From Rubrobacter xylanophilus (lineage in GTDB: Bacteria; Actinomycetota; Rubrobacteria; Rubrobacterales; Rubrobacteraceae), in contig NZ_AP019791.1 in the NCBI RefSeq assembly GCF_007164525.1, forward strand, positions 248,001-312,000: a stretch of DNA of 64,000 bases, given 5' to 3'. Within the stretch, counting starts at the first letter, position 1. Every line of letters starts with the position of its first letter. Shown piece after piece: positions 29,620-45,702 of this stretch. The notes under the pieces were generated by a model that was not told the DNA's origin, did no database searches, and saw nothing but the letters and a program-made list of their open reading frames with translations. Both the position numbers and the translations under genes were made by a program.

Positions 29620-29692
29620 GGCGGGATAGCTCAGGTGGTAGAGCACGTGACTGAAAATCACGGTGTCCCCGGTTCGAGTCCGGGTCCCGCCA
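29620..29692 (+). tRNA. tRNA-Phe (GAA anticodon), attachment site of the integrated element
   Basis: A 73-nt intact cloverleaf with arms GGCGGGA and TCCCGCC. The loop CTGAAAA in a CGTGA/TCACG stem gives anticodon GAA. From base 29649 to the end its sequence is repeated exactly at 45283-45328, so the element integrated into the 3' part of this gene and restored it. Confidence 0.96.
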
Positions 29693-29694
29693 CT
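29649..29694 (+). repeat. attL (tRNA-Phe side)
   Basis: The 46-bp copy of the direct repeat that covers the anticodon loop, T arm and acceptor end of the intact tRNA-Phe. Identity with 45283-45328 stops exactly at both ends. Confidence 0.93.
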
Positions 29695-29726: not shown

Positions 29727-29756
29727 AGAGCCCCGGTTCGGCACCGGGGCTCTTTT
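29727..29756. terminator. strong hairpin with T-run after tRNA-Phe
   Basis: AGAGCCCCGG and CCGGGGCTCT form a 10-bp stem with a 7-nt loop, followed by TTTT. It should end transcription leaving tRNA-Phe and, read the other way, may act behind the integrase gene. A second shorter hairpin (TCCCTGC and GCAGGGA) lies at 29702-29720. Confidence 0.75.
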
Positions 29757-29773
29757 ACACCAGTTTTACACCA
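29752..29773 (+). repeat. left arm-type integrase site (tandem TTTTACACCA)
   Basis: Two direct copies of the 10-mer TTTTACACCA separated by one G, just inside attL. The same 22-bp block in the same orientation is at 45156-45177 near attR. Tandem decamers outside the core are typical arm-binding sites of tyrosine integrases. Confidence 0.7.
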
Positions 29774-29781
29774 ACCGGCCT

Positions 29782-30912
29782 CTAGCCCAAAGCCTCCTCC
29801 ATCGCCGCAGCGAGGGTGTCTCCCATGCCGGGCAAAACGTGGGAGTAGGTATCAAGGGTGATGGCGATGGTCGAGTGCCCTAGAAGCTCCTGGACGAGCT
29901 TTGGATGCTGGCCTTTTGAGAGCAGGAGGGTTGCCGCGGTGTGCCTGAGGTCGTGGAAGCGTATCTTTGGCAGCCCGGCGCGCCGGAGGAGGGGCAGGAA
30001 GGAGCGCTGGATGAGGTTGTGGCGGTCTATGGGGGTGCCTGCCTCGGTGGTGAAGACGAGCCCGTAGTCCTTCCAGAGGGGAGAGCGCAGCTTCTCTTCG
30101 GCCTGGCGCACTTTGTGGGCCTTTAGGGCGGCAACGGCACCGGGGGTGAGCCTTATGCTGCGGCGTCCCTTTGCGGTCTTGGGAGAGGAGAAGAGGGGGC
30201 GTCCGCCTTCGGCTGCGGTGAGGGTGCGCCTTACGGTGAGGGTGGCGGCATCGAGGTCTATGTCCTCCCACTTGAGCCCTAGCAGCTCGCCCTGGCGCAT
30301 CCCGGTGGTGAGGGCCAGGACGTACAGAGCTTCGAGCCTGTCGCCCTCTGCTGCTTCGAGAAAGCGCCGCGCCTCCTCGGGGGAGAGCGGCCGCATCTCC
30401 TCTTTGCGTACCTTTGGGGGGTCTACCGCCTCTGCGGGGTTGCGGGAGATCAAGCCCCACCTCAGGGCCTGCTTTAGCGCCCGGTGCAGTACCACGTGCA
30501 GGTACTGGACGGTGCGCGGCGAGAGCCCACCATCCAGCTTGGCCCGGTAGAGCCCCTGCAGGTGGGCGGGGGTGAGCTTCTTAAGCTTGATGTGCCCGAT
30601 GGCCGGGATGGCGTGCCGCTGCATCAGCCAGGCGTAGCTCTTGTGGGTGGTGGGCCTGACGCTGCCCCTCACGCAGTCCTCAAGCCAGCGCGTGAGATAG
30701 TCAGCTAGAGTGGCATCCTCCGCGTCGTAGACGAGCCCGTTTGACGCCTCCGCCAGCGCAGCAGCAAGTTTATCTGCTACCTCCTTGCGGGTGTCTGCGT
30801 AGAGGGTCCGCCTTTTTCTACCCTCGGGCGTCTCAACCCAGTAGCGGGCCATCCACTTACCCGACTTCTTGTGGCGGGTAATCGAACCCTCGCCGTTGCC
30901 CCTTCTGCCCAT
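29782..30912 (-). CDS. int: tyrosine recombinase/integrase
   Basis: A 376-residue phage-type integrase. The first 60 residues hold an arm-binding domain (SGKWMARYWVETPEGRKR), residues about 65-150 are the SAM-like core-binding domain, and the catalytic part has Arg206 (TGMRQGE), His320 and Arg323 (HDLRH), His346 (LLGHS) and Tyr356 (DTYSH). All key residues are present, so it should be active. It lies next to attL and points toward it, and 3 nt separate it from the excisionase-like gene upstream. Confidence 0.95.
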   Translation of the reverse strand: MGRRGNGEGSITRHKKSGKWMARYWVETPEGRKRRTLYADTRKEVADKLAAALAEASNGLVYDAEDATLADYLTRWLEDCVRGSVRPTTHKSYAWLMQRHAIPAIGHIKLKKLTPAHLQGLYRAKLDGGLSPRTVQYLHVVLHRALKQALRWGLISRNPAEAVDPPKVRKEEMRPLSPEEARRFLEAAEGDRLEALYVLALTTGMRQGELLGLKWEDIDLDAATLTVRRTLTAAEGGRPLFSSPKTAKGRRSIRLTPGAVAALKAHKVRQAEEKLRSPLWKDYGLVFTTEAGTPIDRHNLIQRSFLPLLRRAGLPKIRFHDLRHTAATLLLSKGQHPKLVQELLGHSTIAITLDTYSHVLPGMGDTLAAAMEEALG

Positions 30913-32207: not shown

Positions 32208-35200
32208 ATGACCGATGCTCTTGAGAAGCTGCAAGGACTTCTGAGGGAACTCTTTCAGTTTGATCGCGAGGACCTGGATTTCGGTATCTACCGCATCATG
32301 AACCACAAGCGAGACGAGGTCTTAAAGTTCCTCGACCAGGATCTCTTGCCACAAGTGAAAGAGGCGTTTGCCGGGTTTCGTTCCAGCGAGCAGGAGAAGT
32401 TGTACGAGCGCAAGTCCGTCCTCGAAGCGGAGATCTCCAACATCATCGAGCAGGCCGCTGTCTATGGCGGCTCTCCGGAGAAGAACCCGCGCTACGGGGA
32501 GGCTACCCAGGAGCTTGCCGAGGTGAAAGAGAAACTCGAATCGGATGAGATCTCGAACCGCCTCGAAAACGAGGTCTACTCCGACCTCTACACCTTCCTT
32601 CGCCGCTACTACAAGGACGGCGACTTCATAAGCCTGCGCCGCTACAAGCCCGGCGTCTACGCCATCCCCTACGAAGGCGAGGAGGTCAAGCTATACTGGG
32701 CCAACGCCGACCAGTATTACGTCAAGACCGCCGAGAACTTCCAGAACTACGCCTACAGGACGAAGGCCGGGGTGAGGGTCCGGTTCAGGCTCGTCGCCGC
32801 CGCCACGGAACAGAACAATGTGAAAGGCGGCGACCGCTACTTCATCTGCCGGGCAGAAGAGGCGGAGTATGACGACGATACCCGCACCCTGACCGTGCCC
32901 TTCGAGTACCGGCCCTTGAGCACGGAGGAGAAGGACGAGTACGGGAAACAGCGCAAAACCATCCGCACCCGGCTCATGGAGCGTGCGGAAGATGATTTGA
33001 TCCGTCATTTCAAAGGTAGGCCGGAGGCGCTGGACGCGCTGGAGGGCGAATGCCGCAGGGACTCCAAAAACAACCCGGTCAGCTATCTGAAGCACCACCT
33101 GGGCCGGTACACCGCCAAAAACGAGTTCGACTACTTCATCCACAAGGACCTCGGGGGTTTCCTGCGGCGGGAGCTGGACTTTTTCCTCAAGAACGAGGTC
33201 ATGCACATAGACGACCTCGATACCGAGAACGAGCGGCGCGTCGAGCAGTACCTCTCGAAGCTCAAGGTTATCAAGCGGATCGGTTACAAGATCATAGACT
33301 TCCTCGCCCAGATTGAGGACTTCCAGAAGAAGCTCTTCCTCAAGAAGAAGTTCGTCGTCTCCTCAGGCTACTGTCTCACCCTCGACAACGTGCCCGAGGA
33401 GCTTTACGAGGAGATCGCCGCCAACGACGCCCAGTACGAGGAGTGGGAGAGGCTCTTCGCCATAAGCGAGATACCAAACACCCTGGAGAACGGCGGCAAC
33501 CAGCGGAGCGTGGAGTGGCTGAAGGCCAACCCCTACCTCGTCCTCGACACCAAGCACTTTAACGAAGACTTCAAGAACCGGCTCCTCTCAAACATCGAAG
33601 ATCTGGACGAGAAGACCGACGGGCTCCTCATAAACAGCGAGAACTTTCAGGCCCTCAACCTCTTGCAAGAGCGTTACCGTGAGCAGGTCAGGTGTATCTA
33701 CATAGACCCTCCATACAACACGGGCAAGGATGAGTTTCTCTATAAGGACAACTACCAGCACTCAAGCTGGTTGACGATGATGGAGAATCGGCTGCACTTG
33801 GCAAGAGATATGCTACCCAAAGATGGGGTTCTCTTCGTTAGCACCGATGACATCGAACACGCTAACCTTGAGTACGTTGTAAACCGAATCTTCGGTAGGG
33901 AAAACTTTGTCGCCAACATAATATGGCAGAAGAAGTATGCTAAGCAGAGCGATGCCAAATGGTTCAGTACAAGTCACGATCACATAACTCTTTACGCGAA
34001 GAATAAAGAGGTTTGGCGTCCCAAACGGTTGGAACGCACGCAAGAACAAGCCAAGAACTACGACAACCCTGACAACGATCCTCGTGGTCCCTGGCAATCT
34101 GTGGTCTATACGTGCAATAAGACACGCACCGAGAGACCTAATCTCTACTACCCTATCAAGCATCCGCGAACGGGTAAAGAGATTTACCCAAGCGAGACAC
34201 GAGTGTGGGGTTACAGCTCGGAGCTGTATGAAAAACACGCTGCTGATAACCGACTCTGGTGGGGCAAGAACCAAGAAAAAGACAAGCCACGCTTGAAGGT
34301 GTTCCTCAGCGAGTTACGTGATGGCATCGTGCCAGACACCATCTGGTTGAGAAAGGAAGTTGGAGATACTCAAGACGCGAAACGCGCAATATTGAATCTC
34401 TTTTCGGACTCCGTATTCGATACGCCGAAGCCTACAAAACTGGTGGGGCGCATGTCGCAAATTGCCAGTGAAGATAACCAGGGGCACCTTATGCTGGACT
34501 TCTTCGCTGGCTCCGGTACCACCGGCCACGCGGTCATTGACTTGAACCGGGAGGACGGCGGCAACCGGAAGTACGTCCTCGTGGAGATGGGCGAGTACTT
34601 CGACACGGTGATGAAGCCGCGCATCCAGAAGGTGACCTACTCGAAGGACTGGAAGGAGGGCAAGCCCGTCTCCCGCGAGGGCACGAGCCACATCTTCAAG
34701 TACATGACGCTTGAGTCCTACGAGGACACGCTGAACAACCTTGAGTTGAGGCGCACCGATACACAGGACGACCTCATCGAGTCGGACCGCGCACTGCGCG
34801 AGGAGTACATGCTCTCCTACATGCTCGACTTCGAGACGAAGGGCAGCCCCTCGCTTCTGAACCTCGATGCCTTCGAGGACCCGTTCTCCTACAGGCTCAA
34901 CATCACCCGTAACGACGAGACCTGGCCGGAGAAAGTTGACCTGGTCGAGACCTTCAACTACCTCCTTGGCCTCACCGTCTCCCGCACGTACACCAGAGAC
35001 GGATACCGGGTGGTGGAGGGCAAAAATCCGGTGGGGGAGAGGGTGCTCGTGATCTGGCGCAACACGAAGGAGAAGACGAACGACGACCTCGACGCCTTCT
35101 TCGAGGAGCGGGGCTACGCCGGAGCAGGTTTCAACCACGTCTACGTAAACGGGGACAACACTCTGGCTCTAAGAGATCCGGACAGCAAGGTCCACCTCAT

Positions 35201-35246
35201 CGAGGAGGAGTTCTCGCGCCTCATGTTCGAAACGGAAGGCTCCTGA
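32208..35246 (+). CDS. type III-like DNA adenine methyltransferase (Mod)
   Basis: A 1012-residue modification subunit. Residues 1-460 are a long helical N-terminal region. The catalytic motif DPPYNTG is at about 500-506 and the SAM-binding motif DFFAGSGTTGHA at about 764-775, so it is a beta-class N6-adenine or N4-cytosine methyltransferase with the target-recognition part between them. That middle part (bases about 33740-34480) is visibly more AT-rich than the flanks, as if swapped in. The end overlaps the helicase-nuclease gene by one base (TGATG). It is longer than typical type III Mod proteins because of its N-terminus. Methylation protects host DNA from the Res partner. Confidence 0.88.
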   Translation: MTDALEKLQGLLRELFQFDREDLDFGIYRIMNHKRDEVLKFLDQDLLPQVKEAFAGFRSSEQEKLYERKSVLEAEISNIIEQAAVYGGSPEKNPRYGEATQELAEVKEKLESDEISNRLENEVYSDLYTFLRRYYKDGDFISLRRYKPGVYAIPYEGEEVKLYWANADQYYVKTAENFQNYAYRTKAGVRVRFRLVAAATEQNNVKGGDRYFICRAEEAEYDDDTRTLTVPFEYRPLSTEEKDEYGKQRKTIRTRLMERAEDDLIRHFKGRPEALDALEGECRRDSKNNPVSYLKHHLGRYTAKNEFDYFIHKDLGGFLRRELDFFLKNEVMHIDDLDTENERRVEQYLSKLKVIKRIGYKIIDFLAQIEDFQKKLFLKKKFVVSSGYCLTLDNVPEELYEEIAANDAQYEEWERLFAISEIPNTLENGGNQRSVEWLKANPYLVLDTKHFNEDFKNRLLSNIEDLDEKTDGLLINSENFQALNLLQERYREQVRCIYIDPPYNTGKDEFLYKDNYQHSSWLTMMENRLHLARDMLPKDGVLFVSTDDIEHANLEYVVNRIFGRENFVANIIWQKKYAKQSDAKWFSTSHDHITLYAKNKEVWRPKRLERTQEQAKNYDNPDNDPRGPWQSVVYTCNKTRTERPNLYYPIKHPRTGKEIYPSETRVWGYSSELYEKHAADNRLWWGKNQEKDKPRLKVFLSELRDGIVPDTIWLRKEVGDTQDAKRAILNLFSDSVFDTPKPTKLVGRMSQIASEDNQGHLMLDFFAGSGTTGHAVIDLNREDGGNRKYVLVEMGEYFDTVMKPRIQKVTYSKDWKEGKPVSREGTSHIFKYMTLESYEDTLNNLELRRTDTQDDLIESDRALREEYMLSYMLDFETKGSPSLLNLDAFEDPFSYRLNITRNDETWPEKVDLVETFNYLLGLTVSRTYTRDGYRVVEGKNPVGERVLVIWRNTKEKTNDDLDAFFEERGYAGAGFNHVYVNGDNTLALRDPDSKVHLIEEEFSRLMFETEGS

Positions 35247-38200
35247 TGCCGCGCAGAAAGAAAGAAAAGCTTCGCTTCGAGCAGCGCCTGGTCCTCAACC
35301 AGTACATGCTCGGGCTCTTCGGGGTCGAGACCTTCGATGAGCTGGCCGAGGGACTCAAGGAGCCGGAGTACGAAGAGTGGGACGAGAACAACGTCTCGCG
35401 TATCCACCACGTGCTCGCCGCTCGCTTCTTTGACCTCCCCGAGAGAACCGGCGGACCATCGGTGGATGATTTGCTGCGCTACGATCAGAACATCGTCGGC
35501 CACACGCTCAAGATCAGCGAGAAGCGAGACGAGCGCGTCCGCTGGAAGTACTTCCAGTACCTCTCGTTTCTGTTCGCCGAGATCTACCTCGACCGCTACT
35601 TCCGCGACCCCGAGGCCCTGCTCGACGGGCTCAACAACCGGGTTCGCTCCTTCAACGAGGGTAAGGCGGAAGCTAGTCAGGTGCCCGAGTACGTCCCCGA
35701 TGACCTCCGCAAACTAGCCTTCTGGATGGCAACGGGCTCCGGCAAGACGCTCCTGATGCACGTGAACGTCTTGCAATACCGGCACTACCTGGAGCTGCAC
35801 GGCCGGACCGGCGAGCTGGACAGGATCATCCTGCTCACCCCCAACGAGGGACTCTCCCGCCAGCACCTGCGCGAACTGGAGAAGTCCGGTTTTGAGGCCG
35901 AGCTCTTCTCCAGGAGCAGCGAGAGCCTGTTCACGAGCCAGCGCATCCAGATCCTGGAGATTACCAAGCTCCGTGAGGACACCGGTGTCAAGACGGTCGC
36001 CGTAGAGGCCTTTGAGGGCAACAACCTCGTCCTCGTGGACGAAGGACACCGCGGAACCTCCAAAGCCTCCGACGTGATCGGTGACAAGGGCTGGAAGCCC
36101 ATGCGTGACGCGCTCTGCAAGGACGGCTTCTCCTTCGAGTACTCGGCCACCTTCGGGCAGGCAATGAAGGCCGCGAAAAACAAGAAGCTCACCGACGAGT
36201 ACGCGAAGTGCATCCTCTTCGACTACTCCTACCGCTACTTCTACGGCGACGGCTACGGCAAAGACTACAGGATTCTCAACCTCGAAGAAGGCTCGGACGA
36301 ATCTTTCCGCCACCGCTACTTGGTGGCGGCCCTGCTCTCCTTCCACCAGCAGCAGCTCCTCTACAGGGACCGGGAAAAGGAGCTTCAGCCCTACGGCATA
36401 GAGCGTCCTCTCTGGATGTTCGTCGGCTCTAGCGTCACCAAAAGCCCTAGCAAGGACGACAGGACAGACGTGATCAACATCCTGCGCTTTCTCGCCCGCT
36501 TCGTGCGGGAGCGGGAGGAGAGCGTCGGTATCCTGAAGCGCCTCTTAAGAGGGCGCACGGGTCTCAGCTATAAGGGGCGCGACCTCTTTGCTGACAGCTT
36601 TGGCTATCTCAAAGAAAAGGGGCTCGCCGCTGAAAAGCTCTACGACTCCATCCTCTCCGGCTTCTTCAACGCGGCCGGCCGCGCCATGCTGCACGCCAGC
36701 GTGCTCAAGGAGGCGGAGGGTGAGATCTCCCTCCATCTTGGGGATAACAAGCCTTTCGGTGTCATCAACGTGGGCGACCCTTCGGCGCTCTCGAAGCTCC
36801 TGGAGGAGCAGGAGGAGATCGTGGTCTCCGAGCGGAGCGTCTCCGGCTCGCTCTTCGACGCACTCAACACCCGCGAATCCGGCATCAACCTGCTCGTCGG
36901 GGCCAGGAAGTTCACCGAAGGCTGGAGTAGCTGGCGGGTCAGCAGCATGGGTCTCATGAACGTGGGTAAGAACGAGGGCTCTCAGATCATCCAGCTCTTC
37001 GGCCGTGGTGTCCGCCTCAAGGGGCTGAACTTCAGCCTCAAGCGCAGCTCCCAGATACCGTACACGCGCCACCCCCGGCACATCGAGATTCTGGACCGGC
37101 ACATCGAGATTCTGGAGACACTGAACGTCTTCGGCGTCAGCGCTGACTACATGCAGCAGTTCAAAGAGCACCTGGAAGAGGAGGGGCTCCCCTCAAACGA
37201 CAACATCGAGGAGATAATCCTTCCGGTCAGCAAGACCCTGAATGGCAAGAAGCTTAAGACCATCCGTCTCAAGGAGGGTGTAGATTTCAGGGAGAACGGT
37301 CCCCGCCCCGAGCTCGACACCCCCAACTCTCTATGCGATGCCCTAGCAAGGAAACTCCCCGTAAAGCTGGACTGGTACCCCAAAGTGAGTGCTCTGGAAA
37401 GCAGGAACGGTGCCGTCACCGCCGTGCGCGATGCCGGAAAACTGGAGCCCCGGCACCTTGCTTTCATTAACCTCGACGAGGTCTACTTCGATCTCGTGCG
37501 CTACAAGAACGAGCGCGGCTGGCACAACCTCACCATCTCCAAGGAGAAGGTGGTCGAGCTGCTGAAAAACCCGGGCTGGTACGAGCTTGCGATCCCCTCC
37601 GAAGATCTGGAGTTCTCCCCTGGAAACCTTGGGCAACAGGTACGCACCTGGCAGGAGATTGCCACTTCGCTCCTCAAGGCGTACTGCAAGAAATACTACG
37701 ACACCCGGCGCGCCGAGTTCGAGTCCAAGTACCTCCGGTATCAGGAATTGAGCGAAGAGGACGATAACTTCTTGGAGGAATACCGATTCCAGGTTGAGGC
37801 ATCTAAAGAGGACTACATCCGGGAGCTTCGGGACCTTAAAACAGCTATAGAGAGCGGACAGATGAAGCCTGTGTCGTGGGGCGCCCTGGACATCTTCTCC
37901 TTCGACCGGCACCTCTACAGGCCGCTCGTGCACCTTAAGAACAAAGATGTCTCCGTGAAGCCCGTCGCCTTGAACGAAGGCGAGCGACAGTTCGTGAAGG
38001 ATCTTAAATCATACTACCAGACGCACCCCGATTTCTTCGAAGAGCGGGAGCTGTACCTGCTGCGGAACATGAGCCGGGGTAGGGGCATCGGATTCTTCGA
38101 GGCTGGAAACTTCTACCCGGACTTCATACTCTGGCTGCTGGCCGGAGATCACCAGTACGTCGCGTTCATCGATCCCAAGGGCATCACTAGGCTACGGGGC

Positions 38201-38431
38201 GTAGAAGACCCCAAGATCGCGTTCAAGGACACCATCAAGGAGATAGAGGAGCGCCTCACGGACCCAAACGTGACCCTGAGCTCCTTTATCATCTCCAACA
38301 CCCCATACGACGAGATCGCGTACTGGGGTATGAGCAAGAAAGACCTGGAAGACCGCCACGTCCTCTTCCAGAAAGATGACAAGAACACCTACATAGAGGA
38401 TATGCTGAAGCGCATTCTCGCCCACAGTTGA
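35246..38431 (+). CDS. type III-like restriction subunit (DEAD/DEAH helicase-nuclease, Res)
   Basis: A 1061-residue protein coupled to mod by TGATG. Walker A is ATGSGKT at about residues 162-168, the box-II motif is DEGH at 265-268, followed by SATFGQ, and the second RecA-like domain contains GRGVRLKG. Near the C-terminus, PDF at about 958-960 and IDPKG at 975-979 form a PD-(D/E)xK nuclease site. The reading frame is intact. It should translocate on DNA and cut unmodified invaders in complex with Mod. An IS630-type element begins 76 bp after its stop. Confidence 0.88.
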   Translation: MPRRKKEKLRFEQRLVLNQYMLGLFGVETFDELAEGLKEPEYEEWDENNVSRIHHVLAARFFDLPERTGGPSVDDLLRYDQNIVGHTLKISEKRDERVRWKYFQYLSFLFAEIYLDRYFRDPEALLDGLNNRVRSFNEGKAEASQVPEYVPDDLRKLAFWMATGSGKTLLMHVNVLQYRHYLELHGRTGELDRIILLTPNEGLSRQHLRELEKSGFEAELFSRSSESLFTSQRIQILEITKLREDTGVKTVAVEAFEGNNLVLVDEGHRGTSKASDVIGDKGWKPMRDALCKDGFSFEYSATFGQAMKAAKNKKLTDEYAKCILFDYSYRYFYGDGYGKDYRILNLEEGSDESFRHRYLVAALLSFHQQQLLYRDREKELQPYGIERPLWMFVGSSVTKSPSKDDRTDVINILRFLARFVREREESVGILKRLLRGRTGLSYKGRDLFADSFGYLKEKGLAAEKLYDSILSGFFNAAGRAMLHASVLKEAEGEISLHLGDNKPFGVINVGDPSALSKLLEEQEEIVVSERSVSGSLFDALNTRESGINLLVGARKFTEGWSSWRVSSMGLMNVGKNEGSQIIQLFGRGVRLKGLNFSLKRSSQIPYTRHPRHIEILDRHIEILETLNVFGVSADYMQQFKEHLEEEGLPSNDNIEEIILPVSKTLNGKKLKTIRLKEGVDFRENGPRPELDTPNSLCDALARKLPVKLDWYPKVSALESRNGAVTAVRDAGKLEPRHLAFINLDEVYFDLVRYKNERGWHNLTISKEKVVELLKNPGWYELAIPSEDLEFSPGNLGQQVRTWQEIATSLLKAYCKKYYDTRRAEFESKYLRYQELSEEDDNFLEEYRFQVEASKEDYIRELRDLKTAIESGQMKPVSWGALDIFSFDRHLYRPLVHLKNKDVSVKPVALNEGERQFVKDLKSYYQTHPDFFEERELYLLRNMSRGRGIGFFEAGNFYPDFILWLLAGDHQYVAFIDPKGITRLRGVEDPKIAFKDTIKEIEERLTDPNVTLSSFIISNTPYDEIAYWGMSKKDLEDRHVLFQKDDKNTYIEDMLKRILAHS

Positions 38432-38507: not shown

Positions 38508-39682
38508 TAGTGCACGATCAGGCGACATTTTGTGGGACGGTGAGATGCTCGTAATGGGGACACCCAAACACCCGGCACACCCTCTCGGCAAGCTCGTACG
38601 CTCCGAGAAGCCCGTCGGCCTCCACGACTTTGCGCTTGCCATGAACCCACTTCGGCTCGATGGGGTTCAACCACGGACTCTTCTTCGGGAGAAAGCAGCT
38701 CACGATCCTCACTCCTTCGCCGCTGTTTTTGACCTTGCGATTGTGTTTTCCGAGCCAGCGTCTGACCTCTTTGGAGACGTGCCAGCTTGCGTTGTCCCAG
38801 ATGAGAAGAAAAACCTTCTTGCCCATCTCTTCGAGCTTCTCGGCGCACCACCCGAGAAACTGGGTGGTTACGCAGCTTACGGGCCTTCCGTCCACGAATC
38901 TTAGCCACGTCTGCCCGTCAAGTTCGGGAAGGTAGAGTCCGTAGCAAGAGATCGCCTTCGGCTCGGGGTCGTCTTTGGCGACCGAACGCTGGATGAGGCG
39001 CAGCGGCTCCCCGTCCTCGCTCCAGGCGTTGAGGGTAGGCAAAGCCTCCCGGCTCCACCAGCATTCGTCCGAAAAGCCGGTGGCCCACCCCGGATCGGAG
39101 GCGGAGATCTCCATCAGCCGGTCGCGCCTTCTTTTTTCTCTCGTACAGGGGGTCCGGGGAAGTGATCCACCGCTTAGCCCGCATCCACTTCACCGAGAGA
39201 AGGCGCGACAAGGTGGCCCGGATGGTCTCCCCTGAGACTCGCTCCTCGGTGAGCCCCTCCTCGAAGGCGACGTCTGCGGCCATCTCCAGAGTCCACAGGC
39301 TGCTCTCGCGTCCGAACTCCCTCGGCGAGCGGTGGAGCATCTCCCGCAAAGCCTCGGCGCTCCTCTCGTCGAAGGCGGCGTACACGCGCTTGGGGCGAGA
39401 GGAGCCAGGCGTGAGGGCGTCGAGGCCGCGCTCGTTGAAGGCTCGGATGGCGTTCCTCACCGTTTGCGAAGCGCACCCGAGGTCTTGGGCGATCTTCGGA
39501 GGAGACTTCCCGCGGGCACTCGCCAGAAGGATCTGGCACCGGCGAAGTACGAAAGCGTCTCCTGCGCGCAGCCCCGCCTGGAGTCTCTTGCGCTCCTCGT
39601 CTGACAATTCCCGGACAAATATTGGAGGTTTCATGAAAGGAACTATAGCCCATCACACACAACCCTCTCTGAGGATGCACTA
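38508..39682 (-). mobile_element. IS630-family insertion sequence
   Basis: An element of about 1.17 kb holding an IS630 transposase. The ends read CTAGTGCA, three mismatches, then TCAG inward on both sides, giving imperfect terminal inverted repeats. The TA inside each CTAG fits the TA target used by this family. It sits just after res and does not break it. Confidence 0.65.
38518..39634 (-). CDS. IS630-family transposase in two frames (frameshift at an A6 run)
   Basis: The first frame (from ATG 39634) has the helix-turn-helix part (KSPPKIAQDLGCASQTVRNAI) and reads into KWMRAKRW. The homology then moves to a +1 frame that begins RRDRLMEIS and carries the DDE residues: SDECWW, LIWDNASWH and PWLNPIEPKW. 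The switch point lies at the run of six A (minus strand) at 39132-39137. IS630 elements are often expressed by frameshifting, but usually -1, so a simple disabling indel is also possible. Confidence 0.75.
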
Positions 39683-41121: not shown

Positions 41122-41424
41122 TACACGACCCTCGGAGAGCTCATCTACGGAGCGCACAGACTCAGGGAGCATACCGCCACCCTCATGCAGAAGATCGAAG
41201 ACACCCTGCTCCCCAACCTGCCCGTCTTGCCCTTCGATGCTGCCGCTGCCAGGCGCTACGGAGAGCTCCGGGCCGAGCTGGAGCGGTTGGGCACGCCCAT
41301 AGGCGACGTCGACATGCGGATAGCTGCCATCGCCCTCACGCACGGCCTCAAGGTGGTGACCGGCAACGAGCGCCACTTCCGGCGGGTGCCCGGGCTGAGG
41401 ATGGAGAACTGGCTGAAGCAGTAA
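41122..41424 (+). pseudogene. VapC-like PIN-domain toxin, N-terminus lost
   Basis: The frame reads TTLGELIYGAHR, then LPFDAAAARRYGELRAELERLGTPIGDVDMRIAAIAL, KVVTGNERHF and LRMENW. This is the C-terminal two thirds of a VapC ribonuclease with the later acidic residues of the active site. The first beta strand and its catalytic Asp are missing because the IS256-type element lies directly upstream. ATG 41185 could start a shorter product, but that would not be active. No antitoxin gene is seen beside it. Confidence 0.65.
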
Positions 41425-42528: not shown

Positions 42529-44490
42529 TTAGCTCCAGGGTGTATGTCCCTTCGAAGAGGGTGCGTGCGTGCATGCGTCGTTGCCCGCAAGGTCTGCGGC
42601 GTGGCCGTTTGGGGTTGGTTTTCTTTCTTCCGCTATATAGGTAGAAGTTGCGGACGAATAAAACTTACGCTCGTTCCCGCTCTCCCCGGCCGGACGATGG
42701 TAGCGGTAAGGGTCGCCGCGCCTGCCGCTGCCGGAGCGCAGAACCACACCCTCCTCTACGAGCCGGGTCAAGGTAGCCGCAGCCACAGTCCGCCCGACAC
42801 CGCGGCCTCTCACCGCGTCAACCACCTCAGCCGTGGTCATGGCATGCTCCTGTAGGGCGGGGAGCGTGTCCAGGATGGCTTCTCGGGCCTGCTGTTGTGC
42901 GAACGCCGCGGTGTCGCCAAGGGCTCTGTAGCCCTCGTCGGTAAGCTCGATAACGAGCTTGTCGGGCGTGCCGTCAAACCGGCTCAGGCTCTCGATCACG
43001 CGCACCGTCGGGCGTGTGTTGCCCTCCGGTCGCCGCAGCGAGAGGATAATGTCAACCGCCCCGCCAAACGCGCTGCTGCCGCGGGCGGCCTCGCCAACCT
43101 CTCCACCGCCCTTTCGCTCGTGGCGGCAGAAGAGCACCGCCAGCCCTTCGCCCGCCGCACGCTGCAACGGCTGGACGGCCCGCAGCGCCTCGCCTGCGCT
43201 ATTCTCGGCGTCGCCCCGCAGCCCTGCGAACTGCCCCAGCGTGTCAACGACCAGCACGCCAGCCCCCACTTCGCGGGCGAACTCTGTTGCAGCGTCTGCG
43301 AGTTCGGGCCACGGTACGTCTGGGTGTTCGTGCCAGTAGAGAACATGCAGGTCGTCCCGGTCCCCGAGCCCGGCCCGCTCCAGTGCCTGCCGGAACGACG
43401 CGGGCTGCTGCTCCGTGAGAAAAACCGCGGCAGTTTTCTTGGTCGGCCGGCCAAGGAATGACCGCCCGTCCAACACAGCGCGGAGCATGTGGGTGACGAG
43501 CGTGGTCTTGCCCGCGCTCTTGATCTTGCCGTCCAACTCGGTTATCGCACCGGAGGCCAGGAACCCCTGCACTATCCACGCGGGCTCTGAAGGCGTCTCT
43601 TCGCTGATCTCGCGGGCGGTCCGGAACCTGATCTTTCTTTCGTCCGCAACTCCCATCCTATACGCGGACGAAAGAAAATCGTTCCCCGAGTCCGGCTCAT
43701 AACGGGCCACGGAGCGAGCGATGGCCGCGACCTCCGTCTCCGGCAAGGGAGGTTTGCAACGCCGCTCGTTGACCGCGAGCAGTACGGCCATGATTGTCTC
43801 CGGATCGGTGCCGTGCCGCCGGAGGGAGCCCGCAATCCTCGTCAGCGCCTCGTTCCTTTTGCCCTTGCGGATCGGCCCCTCCCCGACCGGCTCGCCGTGC
43901 TGTCGCCGCCCCTCCTCCTCGGGCGGCAGCTCGTTTGCCACGCCCCGGAGGTCGCGTTCCTCGGGCTTAAGCCACAGGAGCCGCACGGCTGGCCGGTCCG
44001 GGTACTTTAGATTCCGACCGGTCGGCAGCCGGAGCAGTTGAACCAGGTCAGCCCCGCTCGGATCCGCGCCCAGGACTTGCGCGACCCTCCGGTTCATCTG
44101 CGCTGCCAGCTGCGGCGGGCAGGAACGCGACAGCCTCCAGAAGGCGTGGTAGCGGCCCGGCGAAGTCGTGACCACAGCGGTGGGGCGCAGCGGCTCCGTC
44201 TCAGGCAGCTCCCCGCCACCGTCCAGATCAGCCCAGATGACGCGCACAGGGCCTGCGTTCTCGGTGATCCTGCGGGGTTTCCCAAGCGGCGCGGGGCAGA
44301 AAAAGACCTCGCGGTCGCGGGCCGCCTCGTTCTCGGCCCAATTCGCGGCCTCCCGGAGGCCTCCGGGGAGCGGGAAGAACCGCTCACTGAGTCCGGCAAG
44401 CCGTCCATCGCGCCTCCCAGCGCTAACGACAGCCACAAAACCCCTGGCTCCGCCGAGGGTGTGGCGGAGGAACCGCTCGCAGCTGCTCAT
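42529..44490 (-). CDS. primase-helicase (AEP-like primase, PriCT, RepA-like AAA ATPase)
   Basis: A 653-residue replication protein. The N-terminal part has a RepB/D5-type primase-like segment (VRVIWADLDGGG, then TTSPGRYHAFWRL). Residues about 210-270 resemble a PriCT linker domain (RNEALTRIAGSLRRHG). Then comes a RepA-like ATPase with P-loop GKIKSAGKTT, one residue longer than the classic Walker A, and Walker B VLVVDTLG. A winged helix lies near the C-terminus (MTTAEVVDAVRGRG). ATG 44490 has GGAGG 7 nt upstream. It suggests that the element replicates or did so as a plasmid or satellite. Confidence 0.82.
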   Translation of the reverse strand: MSSCERFLRHTLGGARGFVAVVSAGRRDGRLAGLSERFFPLPGGLREAANWAENEAARDREVFFCPAPLGKPRRITENAGPVRVIWADLDGGGELPETEPLRPTAVVTTSPGRYHAFWRLSRSCPPQLAAQMNRRVAQVLGADPSGADLVQLLRLPTGRNLKYPDRPAVRLLWLKPEERDLRGVANELPPEEEGRRQHGEPVGEGPIRKGKRNEALTRIAGSLRRHGTDPETIMAVLLAVNERRCKPPLPETEVAAIARSVARYEPDSGNDFLSSAYRMGVADERKIRFRTAREISEETPSEPAWIVQGFLASGAITELDGKIKSAGKTTLVTHMLRAVLDGRSFLGRPTKKTAAVFLTEQQPASFRQALERAGLGDRDDLHVLYWHEHPDVPWPELADAATEFAREVGAGVLVVDTLGQFAGLRGDAENSAGEALRAVQPLQRAAGEGLAVLFCRHERKGGGEVGEAARGSSAFGGAVDIILSLRRPEGNTRPTVRVIESLSRFDGTPDKLVIELTDEGYRALGDTAAFAQQQAREAILDTLPALQEHAMTTAEVVDAVRGRGVGRTVAAATLTRLVEEGVVLRSGSGRRGDPYRYHRPAGESGNERKFYSSATSTYIAEERKPTPNGHAADLAGNDACTHAPSSKGHTPWS

Positions 44491-44728
44491 CGTCCCACCT
44501 CCCCGGCAAGTTGCGCCAGCTCGGGCATGGGGGTGTAACGATGGTGGAAAATCCGTTGGCGATGGGTTATAGTTTGCATGTTCCGTTTCAGTCCGATCCT
44601 CCCGTCCGTTCCTTGCTTGATCAGGGGGGACCGGCTCTTTTCTCTCACCTCCTATGTGATAGTTTTTTGAGCTCTCCAGTATTGGGCATTATAACTCACA
44701 ATTTGCATACAATGTATAATTGTACACG
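44491..44728. promoter_or_regulatory. AT-rich spacer with a TACAAT-N5-ATTGTA palindrome
   Basis: The gap between the AlpA-like gene and the primase-helicase is far more AT-rich than the surroundings. TACAAT and ATTGTA (44708-44724) form a 6-bp inverted repeat with a 5-nt centre. The hexamer TTTGCA occurs three times near 44570, 44702 and 44735. This could be a promoter-operator for the primase operon or part of a replication origin. Confidence 0.4.
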
Positions 44729-44920
44729 CTATTCCGTATGCGTTTGCAATATGCGCCGCAGCTCCGCTACTGGAACGAGTCGACGCCCGCCGATTTTGAT
44801 GGCTCGGATCTCTTTGCGGCGAATTGCTCTGTAGAGGGTGGTGCGACCAATCCCCAGCAGCCGCGCTGCCTCCTCGGGGCTGACCGCCAGCCGTTCGCCG
44901 TTCTCGTTCAGGATGCTCAC
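44729..44920 (-). CDS. AlpA-like excisionase/regulator with HTH_17 domain
   Basis: A 63-residue DNA-binding protein: LAVSPEEAARLLGIGRTTLYRAIRRKEI, then IKIGGRRLVPVAELRRIL. GTG 44920 is chosen because AAAGGAGGTTGCG lies right before it; longer in-frame starts to 44986 lack a ribosome site. It heads the element's right-hand operon. AlpA-type proteins switch on integrase or replication genes of cryptic elements. It differs from the excisionase-like protein beside int. Confidence 0.8.
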   Translation of the reverse strand: MSILNENGERLAVSPEEAARLLGIGRTTLYRAIRRKEIRAIKIGGRRLVPVAELRRILQTHTE

Positions 44921-44956
44921 CGCAACCTCCTTTAGGTCGCGGCGCTCCCGGAAACG

Positions 44957-45021
44957 CCGAAAGGGCACGCCGGAGAAGACCGGCAAATAGGCCGGTGCTT
45001 AACCCCGGCGCACCCTTTCGG
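44957..45021 (-). ncRNA. structured 65-nt leader element before the AlpA-like gene
   Basis: CCGAAAGGG and CCCTTTCGG form a perfect 9-bp outer stem. A symmetric CA/CA internal loop follows, then a 6-bp stem CGCCGG/CCGGCG, and inside it a hairpin ACCGGC/GCCGGT with a 6-nt loop. It lies between a TATAAT promoter and the AlpA-like start codon, so it would be in the 5' leader. It could be an attenuator, a small regulatory RNA or, as DNA, a cruciform origin. No known riboswitch class is recognised. Confidence 0.45.
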
Positions 45022-45098
45022 ATACCATCGTGGTTCGGTTGGCTATTTTGGAAAGCTAGGCGTTCGGGTGCGCCTGTTTCTTCAATTATCCAACCCTC

Positions 45099-45104
45099 AT
45101 TATA
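45099..45104 (-). promoter_or_regulatory. extended -10 promoter of the AlpA-primase operon
   Basis: TGGTATAAT on the minus strand is a full consensus -10 with an extended TG. No clear -35 is seen. It points toward the AlpA-like gene and would give a leader of about 170 nt containing the hairpin element. Confidence 0.55.
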
Positions 45105-45155
45105 CCACGAGGGCGCTGTGAGACCACGTTTTTCTCTCCGGTCTGCGTGATATGC

Positions 45156-45177
45156 CTTTTACACCAGTTTTACACCA
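45156..45177 (+). repeat. right arm-type integrase site (tandem TTTTACACCA)
   Basis: The same 22-bp block as at 29752-29773, in the same orientation, about 105 bp inside attR. Its identity on both ends of an otherwise unrelated sequence supports a role in integrase binding. Confidence 0.7.
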
Positions 45178-45282: not shown

Positions 45283-45328
45283 GACTGAAAATCACGGTGT
45301 CCCCGGTTCGAGTCCGGGTCCCGCCACT
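45283..45328 (+). repeat. attR (tRNA-Phe 3' fragment)
   Basis: A 46-bp exact copy of the 3' part of tRNA-Phe, lacking the 5' half, so it cannot make a tRNA. It marks the right border of the element. The next chromosomal gene ends 6 bp further on. Confidence 0.93.
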
Positions 45329-45333
45329 TCTCC

Positions 45334-45702
45334 TTAACTGCCGAAGAGGCGGCCGGAGGACGCCGGTCCTTCGGCTCTGAGTTTCTCCAGGAGGTCCGTG
45401 GCGTTGAGGTAGCGGATCCTTAGCCCCGCAAGCTTCCGGCTGGCCTCCAGGTACTCCTCGTGATCCATGCGGGTAGCCGCCCTCTCGGCCGCGTGCCGGA
45501 CGTCGGTGAGCTGCTGGCCGGTCAGGTCCCGTTCCAGCTCCACCACCTGCACCCTCAGCCGCCATATCTTCTCGTAGAGCTCCTGCTTGCGCGCGGGGTC
45601 GAGCAGGCCCTTTCTGGCCCCGAGCGTGTCCATGACCGCTTGTTCGAGATCTCTTCGAGCCCGCTCCAGCCGCGCCTCGAGGTCTCCCGCAGGTTGTGCC
45701 AC
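45334..45702 (-). CDS. hypothetical coiled-coil protein
   Basis: A 122-residue charged helical protein (LEARLERARRDLEQAV, then YEKIWRLRVQVVELERDL) from GTG 45702. It has no TM segment or known motif. It is the first chromosomal gene beyond attR and would have faced tRNA-Phe before the element integrated. It follows the Vps62-type gene on the same strand after about 90 nt. Confidence 0.65.
   Translation of the reverse strand: MAQPAGDLEARLERARRDLEQAVMDTLGARKGLLDPARKQELYEKIWRLRVQVVELERDLTGQQLTDVRHAAERAATRMDHEEYLEASRKLAGLRIRYLNATDLLEKLRAEGPASSGRLFGS

What the first reader, a model, noticed from the sequence alone, without database searches (positions are those of the whole stretch)
44957..45104. 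Compound stem-loop in the leader of the element's right-hand operon
A 9-bp stem, a CA/CA symmetric loop, a 6-bp stem and an inner 6-bp hairpin lie between an extended -10 promoter and the AlpA-like start. The symmetry is too regular for chance in 65 nt. It could sense a ligand, attenuate transcription, act as an antisense target, or serve as a nicking or replication origin for the primase-helicase.
Basis: partly seen in the sequence, partly recalled or inferred. Interest (0 to 1): 0.6.

Follow-up and report, generated by a model that had tools for sequence, protein, structure and literature searches.

The report
Structured RNA leader before alpA gene
The hairpin is real and far too regular for chance; it most likely works as RNA in the front end of one message of a mobile DNA element, next to a second fold that hides the start of the alpA gene, but no relatives were found and its exact job is unproven.

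Summary
The hairpin (44957-45021) sits in the ~172-nt leader of alpA, inside a 15.6-kb tRNA-Phe-integrated element of a Rubrobacter chromosome; the sister genome has the empty site. There the "CA/CA loop" becomes U.G/G.U pairs. The result is an unbroken 19-bp stem, about 28 bp in all, and -50.5 versus -42.8 kcal/mol on the + strand. It is the longest short-loop stem in 64 kb. That start is the least accessible of the credible genes in the window and of nine alpA-like genes tested. Best reading: a cis-acting RNA leader that keeps alpA translation low, with the big hairpin as an insulating or RNase III-type stem. This part is inference. I found no homologue of the leader, so covariation cannot be tested. 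Sequence resemblance to C4 antisense RNA is notable (17 identical bases; best of 4227 families), but membership fails. A thermodynamic switch, intrinsic terminator, thermometer and RSF1010-type initiation site are disfavoured.

The parts
29620..29693 (+). tRNA-Phe, left junction (attL side)
   Evidence: ARAGORN/Rfam; bases 29649-29694 repeated exactly at 45283-45328
45283..45328 (+). 46-bp copy of the tRNA-Phe 3' half, right end of the element (attR)
   Evidence: in sister genome G014 (L170) the two flanks meet with the 46 bp present once
45157..45177 (+). arm-type repeat TTTTACACCAGTTTTACACCA, same as 29753-29773 at the other end; probable integrase/excisionase binding site
   Evidence: two exact matches, 0 expected; role inferred
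45099..45107 (-). extended -10 promoter TGGTATAAT; start site inferred near 45092
   Evidence: direct reading; only TGNTATAAT in the window; not found by the two-hexamer scan, no good -35
45040..45092 (-). hairpin HP1 (core GAAACAGGCG...CGCCTAGCTTTC, about 45080-45051), loop region holds GGCGCACCC
44957..45021 (-). hairpin HP2, the reported compound stem-loop: 19 unbroken pairs then a 3+6 bp inner stem
44918..44944 (-). hairpin HP3: 11-bp stem, AAAGG loop; buries half the SD and most of the GTG start of alpA
44926..44933 (-). Shine-Dalgarno AAAGGAGG of alpA
   Evidence: direct reading
44729..44920 (-). AlpA-like excisionase/regulator, 63 aa (HTH_17; phrog_66)
42529..44490 (-). primase-helicase (RepB_primase, PriCT_1, AAA_25), 653 aa
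29782..30912 (-). tyrosine-type integrase, 376 aa
   Evidence: relatives up to 68% identical in the class; family assigned from own knowledge of the sequence

Best explanation
The hairpin is part of a cis-acting RNA leader (about 172 nt, 45092-44921, - strand) of the first gene at the right end of an integrated mobile element. The leader folds into three successive hairpins. The last (HP3) pairs half of the Shine-Dalgarno sequence and most of the GTG start codon of alpA, so the AlpA excisionase/regulator is made at a low, controlled rate. The big hairpin (HP2) is a rigid stem that isolates HP3 from upstream RNA, including read-through from the host gene at 45334-45702 that points into the element, and is long enough to be an RNase III substrate. 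What would open HP3 (a protein, ribosome loading at the exposed AAAGG loop, or cleavage) is not known. Shown: predicted structure, strand preference, position, predicted occlusion of the start. Inferred: translational control, insulation, RNase III.
For: The stem is 7.7 kcal/mol more stable on the transcribed strand, because its three non-Watson-Crick positions are G.U there and A.C on the other strand (sequence). Leader z = -6.5 on the sense strand and -3.8 on the antisense strand. The leader lies between a window-unique extended -10 and the alpA start. Opening the SD/start costs 17.7 kcal/mol, the highest of 27 starts tested except one ORF that is probably spurious, against 3-9 for eight other Rubrobacter alpA-like genes. 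HP2 is the longest short-loop stem in 64 kb. The genome encodes an RNase III.
Against: There is no homologue of the leader in 39 Rubrobacteria genomes, phages or plasmids, so no covariation. Leaders of other alpA-like genes do not show the same fold, except a long hairpin of different design in L040. HP3 leaves AAAGG in the loop, so translation need not be blocked. HP3 is also a DNA palindrome (GCAACCT-N5-AGGTCGC) that could be an operator. No expression data. In GC-rich DNA strong hairpins are common: HP2 is exceptional in length but not alone in energy.
Confidence: 0.42

Rival explanations
1. Cis-acting transcription control: a nascent-RNA element like HK022 put or Tn916 canT that modifies RNA polymerase, or a Rho-dependent attenuator, acting on the alpA-primase operon.
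For: put RNAs are ~70 nt, two stem-loops, putL just downstream of an early promoter (PMC9378689); Tn916 uses a terminal insulator and a cis-RNA antiterminator to control replication genes (PMC11658703). HP1 and HP2 sit just downstream of the promoter.
Against: put stems carry several bulges, HP2 has a 19-bp unbroken stem; no terminator found on the - strand in the region scanned.
Confidence: 0.15
2. P4 CI / P1 C4-type antisense immunity: the leader makes a small RNA that pairs with complementary sites in the same nascent transcript and stops the replication operon.
For: 17-mer CCGAAAGGGTGCGCCGG occurs in C4 RNAs of viral contigs L093 (51.9 bits) and L092 (36 bits); C4 is the best of 4227 Rfam families for 44950-45050 on the - strand, E = 0.026; GGCGCACCC in HP1 is an exact complement of GGGTGCGCC in HP2, chance about 2%. 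P4 also places such an RNA upstream of its primase gene (own knowledge).
Against: 21.3 bits against a cut-off of 45; first C4 hairpin and CCAACCC segment absent; scaled to the window, E would be about 16; the candidate antisense segment is locked in a 19-bp stem.
Confidence: 0.12
3. DNA element: single-strand initiation site or origin for the element's own RepB-type primase.
For: The primase has a RepB_primase domain; RSF1010 RepB' starts at ssi hairpins (PMC4434180). As DNA both strands form the hairpin, -25.0 and -28.3 kcal/mol.
Against: ssiA is a 21-nt hairpin (nt 7-27) with GTG at nt 31-33; here the hairpin is 65 nt and no GTG lies at that place on either strand. No similar hairpin was seen in the leaders checked near related primases. 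The position between promoter and start is that of a leader.
Confidence: 0.12
4. No present function: a chance or relic inverted repeat.
For: No conservation found.
Against: Longest stem in 64 kb, in a 172-nt leader, best paired on the transcribed strand; two further hairpins beside it.
Confidence: 0.15

Closest known systems
RBS-sequestering 5' leaders (translational control hairpins)
   Same: SD and start codon partly paired in a stable hairpin next to the gene
   Different: No ligand, protein or alternative fold identified; AAAGG of the SD is exposed in the loop
Phage lambda N leader RNase III hairpin (own knowledge)
   Same: Long hairpin between an early promoter and the first gene's RBS
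   Different: Cleavage not shown; no nut site sought; different phylum
HK022 put RNA and Tn916 canT
   Same: Cis RNA near a mobile-element promoter (PMC9378689, PMC11658703)
   Different: Stem architecture differs; no sequence comparison was made; activity untested
C4 antisense RNA (RF01695) and P4 CI RNA
   Same: 17 identical bases with C4 cores in L092/L093; CCGG-loop-CCGGU hairpin; place before a replication gene
   Different: 21.3 bits, below cut-off 45; lacks the first hairpin and the conserved CCAACCC segment
RSF1010 ssiA/ssiB
   Same: Hairpin near a RepB-domain primase gene
   Different: Size, flanks and GTG motif do not match

Membership tests
RBS-sequestering translational leader | SD and start codon base-paired in the predicted ensemble | tested here: met
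   SD bases 6-8 and first two start-codon bases 0-7% unpaired at 37 C (AAAGG in loop, third start-codon base mostly open); opening 17.7 kcal/mol
RBS-sequestering translational leader | An alternative fold that frees the start | tested here: not met
   forced 1:2 pairing costs 18 and 1:2+3:4 costs 29 kcal/mol at 37 C (14 and 21 at 60 C)
C4 antisense RNA (RF01695) | Score at or above the family cut-off (45 bits) | tested here: not met
   21.3 bits, E 0.026 for 101 bp
C4 antisense RNA (RF01695) | First internal hairpin and conserved CCGGUuUgCcAACCC segment | tested here: not met
   alignments
RSF1010-type ssi | 21-nt hairpin with GTG 4-6 nt 3' of it | tested here: not met
   sequence of 44940-45035 against PMC4434180
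RSF1010-type ssi | Cognate RepB-type primase encoded nearby | tested here: met
   PF16793, E 1.8e-9, partial domain match
Intrinsic terminator / attenuator | GC-rich stem followed by a U tract on the transcribed strand | tested here: not met
   sequence after HP2 is CGTTTCCGGG
RNA thermometer | Start opens within the growth range | tested here: not met
   still paired at 70 C
HK022 put-like antiterminator | Two bulged stem-loops just downstream of the promoter that bind RNA polymerase | tested here: inconclusive
   position fits, stem design does not; binding not testable
RNase III site | About 20 bp or more of double-stranded RNA and an RNase III in the host | tested here: met
   19 + 9 bp; RNase III hit E 2.7e-46, 158 bits, just under the 166-bit cut-off
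RNase III site | Cleavage in vivo | not testable with these tools
   no RNA data

The most novel reading that the evidence does not exclude
The leader is a new kind of mobile-element immunity or antitermination RNA for actinobacterial integrative elements with a RepB-type primase, a functional counterpart of P4 CI/C4 or put that evolved apart from them, acting on the same nascent transcript.
Probability: 0.1. Interest if true: 0.6.

Novelty: new member of a known kind. Interest (0 to 1): 0.3.

Why it matters
If right, it is an example of leader-RNA control of an excisionase/replication module in deep-branching actinobacteria, where regulation of such elements is little studied as far as I know. 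It would also give a clean test case for how an integrated element keeps its excision gene quiet despite transcription arriving from the host. As a single, unconserved case it is of moderate interest.

Tried and rejected
Searched for copies or relatives: own genome (single copy), 39 Rubrobacteria genomes by DNA, phages and plasmids. The 17-mer gave four viral contigs: two carry C4-type RNA, and the other two showed no family match; I followed the C4 lead and rejected membership. The 29 C4 sequences were chosen by a pattern containing CCAACC, so I rely on the Rfam consensus for that feature. A 1:2/3:4 versus 2:3/4:5 switch looked attractive by eye but is far less stable. A + strand antisense RNA ending at a terminator-like site at 45057-45076 is at chance level. 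A nine-codon ORF (TTG at 45085) in the leader lacks a convincing SD. REP/MITE origin rejected (single copy). Leaders of related primase or alpA genes showed no shared fold. In one search some loci were in the wrong orientation; one search corrects this.

Full report
Context. The window lies in a 3.02-Mb chromosome of the class Rubrobacteria; the sister genome of the same genus has 3,225,748 bp. The finding is at the right end of an integrated element. A 46-bp part of tRNA-Phe (29649-29694) is repeated exactly at 45283-45328. In the sister genome (L170) the left and right flanks meet with a single copy of this 46 bp, which is the empty site. A repeat TTTTACACCAGTTTTACACCA lies inside both ends (29753 and 45157). 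The element encodes an integrase (29782-30912, -), a pair of large genes that look like a type III restriction-modification system (32208-38431), remains of insertion sequences, a primase-helicase (42529-44490, -; RepB_primase, PriCT_1, AAA_25) and a 63-aa AlpA-like protein (44729-44920, -; HTH_17, phrog_66).

Observation. On the + strand the reported stem-loop is exactly as described, at 44957-45021. But the operon is transcribed from the - strand, from an extended -10 TGGTATAAT at 45107-45099, the only such site in 64 kb. On that strand the two C.A mismatches become U.G and G.U pairs and a third wobble extends the stem: 19 unbroken pairs, then 3 and 6 more separated by small bulges. Folding energy is -50.5 kcal/mol against -42.8 on the + strand. 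This is the longest stem with a loop of up to 40 nt on either strand of the window; one such stem of 19 bp arose in 20 simulated windows, so chance within this one leader is small. All three non-Watson-Crick positions favour the transcribed strand, a weak hint by itself (1 in 8) that the RNA is what matters.

The neighbour hairpin. Just downstream, 44944-44918 forms an 11-bp stem with loop AAAGG. It takes in half of the Shine-Dalgarno AAAGGAGG and most of the GTG start of alpA. Opening this start costs 17.7 kcal/mol, the highest of 27 starts tested in the window apart from one ORF at 39162 that overlaps transposase-like ORFs on the other strand and is probably spurious. Eight other Rubrobacter alpA-like genes give 3-9 kcal/mol. 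It remains closed up to 70 C, so it is not a melting thermometer.

Is there a switch? By eye, GGCGCACCC in HP1 pairs perfectly with GGGTGCGCC of HP2, and the other HP2 arm with the 5' arm of HP3, which would free the start. The 9-nt complement has a chance of about 2%. However, forcing 1:2 costs 18 kcal/mol and forcing 1:2 plus 3:4 costs 29 kcal/mol, so this cannot be an equilibrium switch.

Relatives. No DNA relative of the leader was found in 39 genomes of the class, 50,697 phage records or 72,556 plasmid records beyond short chance matches. The helicase half of the primase has relatives at 45-60% identity in Rubrobacteraceae, Chloroflexi and Acidobacteria assemblies and at 47-51% in viral contigs, with other gene contexts. 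The leaders that I folded do not share the fold. In L040, the closest alpA-primase pair, the start lies at the foot of a long G.U-rich hairpin (-95 versus -69 kcal/mol by strand; z -2.8 versus -1.1 for a 260-nt stretch); a parallel of interest but not strong. Covariation therefore could not be tested.

The C4 lead. An exact search with the 17-nt HP2 arm returned four viral contigs. One is a C4 antisense RNA (51.9 bits) and one a weaker C4 (36 bits). Scanning 44950-45050 put C4 first of 4227 families, on the - strand, at 21.3 bits and E = 0.026. That is below the curated cut-off of 45, does not appear in the 421-bp scan, would be about E = 16 if scaled to the window, and the alignment lacks the first hairpin and the conserved CCAACCC segment. 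I do not file it as C4. That it works in a similar way is possible but disfavoured, because the candidate antisense segment is locked in the stem.

Other rivals. There is no U tract or terminator on the - strand. RSF1010 ssiA is a 40-nt site with a 21-nt hairpin and GTG at nt 31-33 (PMC4434180), which does not fit, though as DNA the hairpin forms on both strands and a different origin type cannot be excluded. HK022 put (PMC9378689) and Tn916 canT (PMC11658703) show that mobile elements use cis-acting RNAs to control early transcription; this remains a live rival.

Mechanism. I take the leader to be a cis-acting RNA that limits alpA translation, with HP2 as a rigid, possibly RNase III-cut, stem; the host encodes RNase III. 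Shown by computation: structure, strand preference, promoter motif, start occlusion. Inferred: translational control, insulation against read-through from the host gene at 45334-45702, and cleavage. The primase may have a promoter of its own, since a TATAAT occurs between alpA and the primase gene, so control may be limited to alpA.

Noticed in passing
29649-29694, 45283-45328, L170: Clean element boundaries in tRNA-Phe with the empty site in the sister genome; 15.6-kb element.
   Followed up: yes
29753-29773, 45157-45177: Identical TTTTACACCAG double repeats inside both element ends, probable arm-type integrase sites.
   Followed up: partly
44918-44944: HP3 is also a DNA palindrome GCAACCT-N5-AGGTCGC, single in the element, that could be an AlpA operator over its own start.
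   Followed up: partly
L040 1080-1265: Another alpA-primase pair in Rubrobacteria whose alpA start closes a long G.U-rich hairpin, much weaker on the opposite strand.
   Followed up: partly
L093 8046-8129 (-), L092 9419-9498 (-), L124-L166: C4-type antisense RNAs in IMG/VR contigs; L092 is below the Rfam cut-off and has a GAAA loop.
   Followed up: partly
41185-41424: Truncated PIN/VapC-like ORF inside the element (by eye), near insertion-sequence remains.
   Followed up: no
32208-38431: Type III restriction-modification-like gene pair carried by the element (by eye).
   Followed up: no
about 44688-44697 (-): A second TATAAT between alpA and the primase gene; the primase may have its own promoter.
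   Followed up: no
L051, just downstream of alpA: A 20-bp stem downstream of an alpA-like gene next to an integrase in G003, probably a terminator.
   Followed up: no
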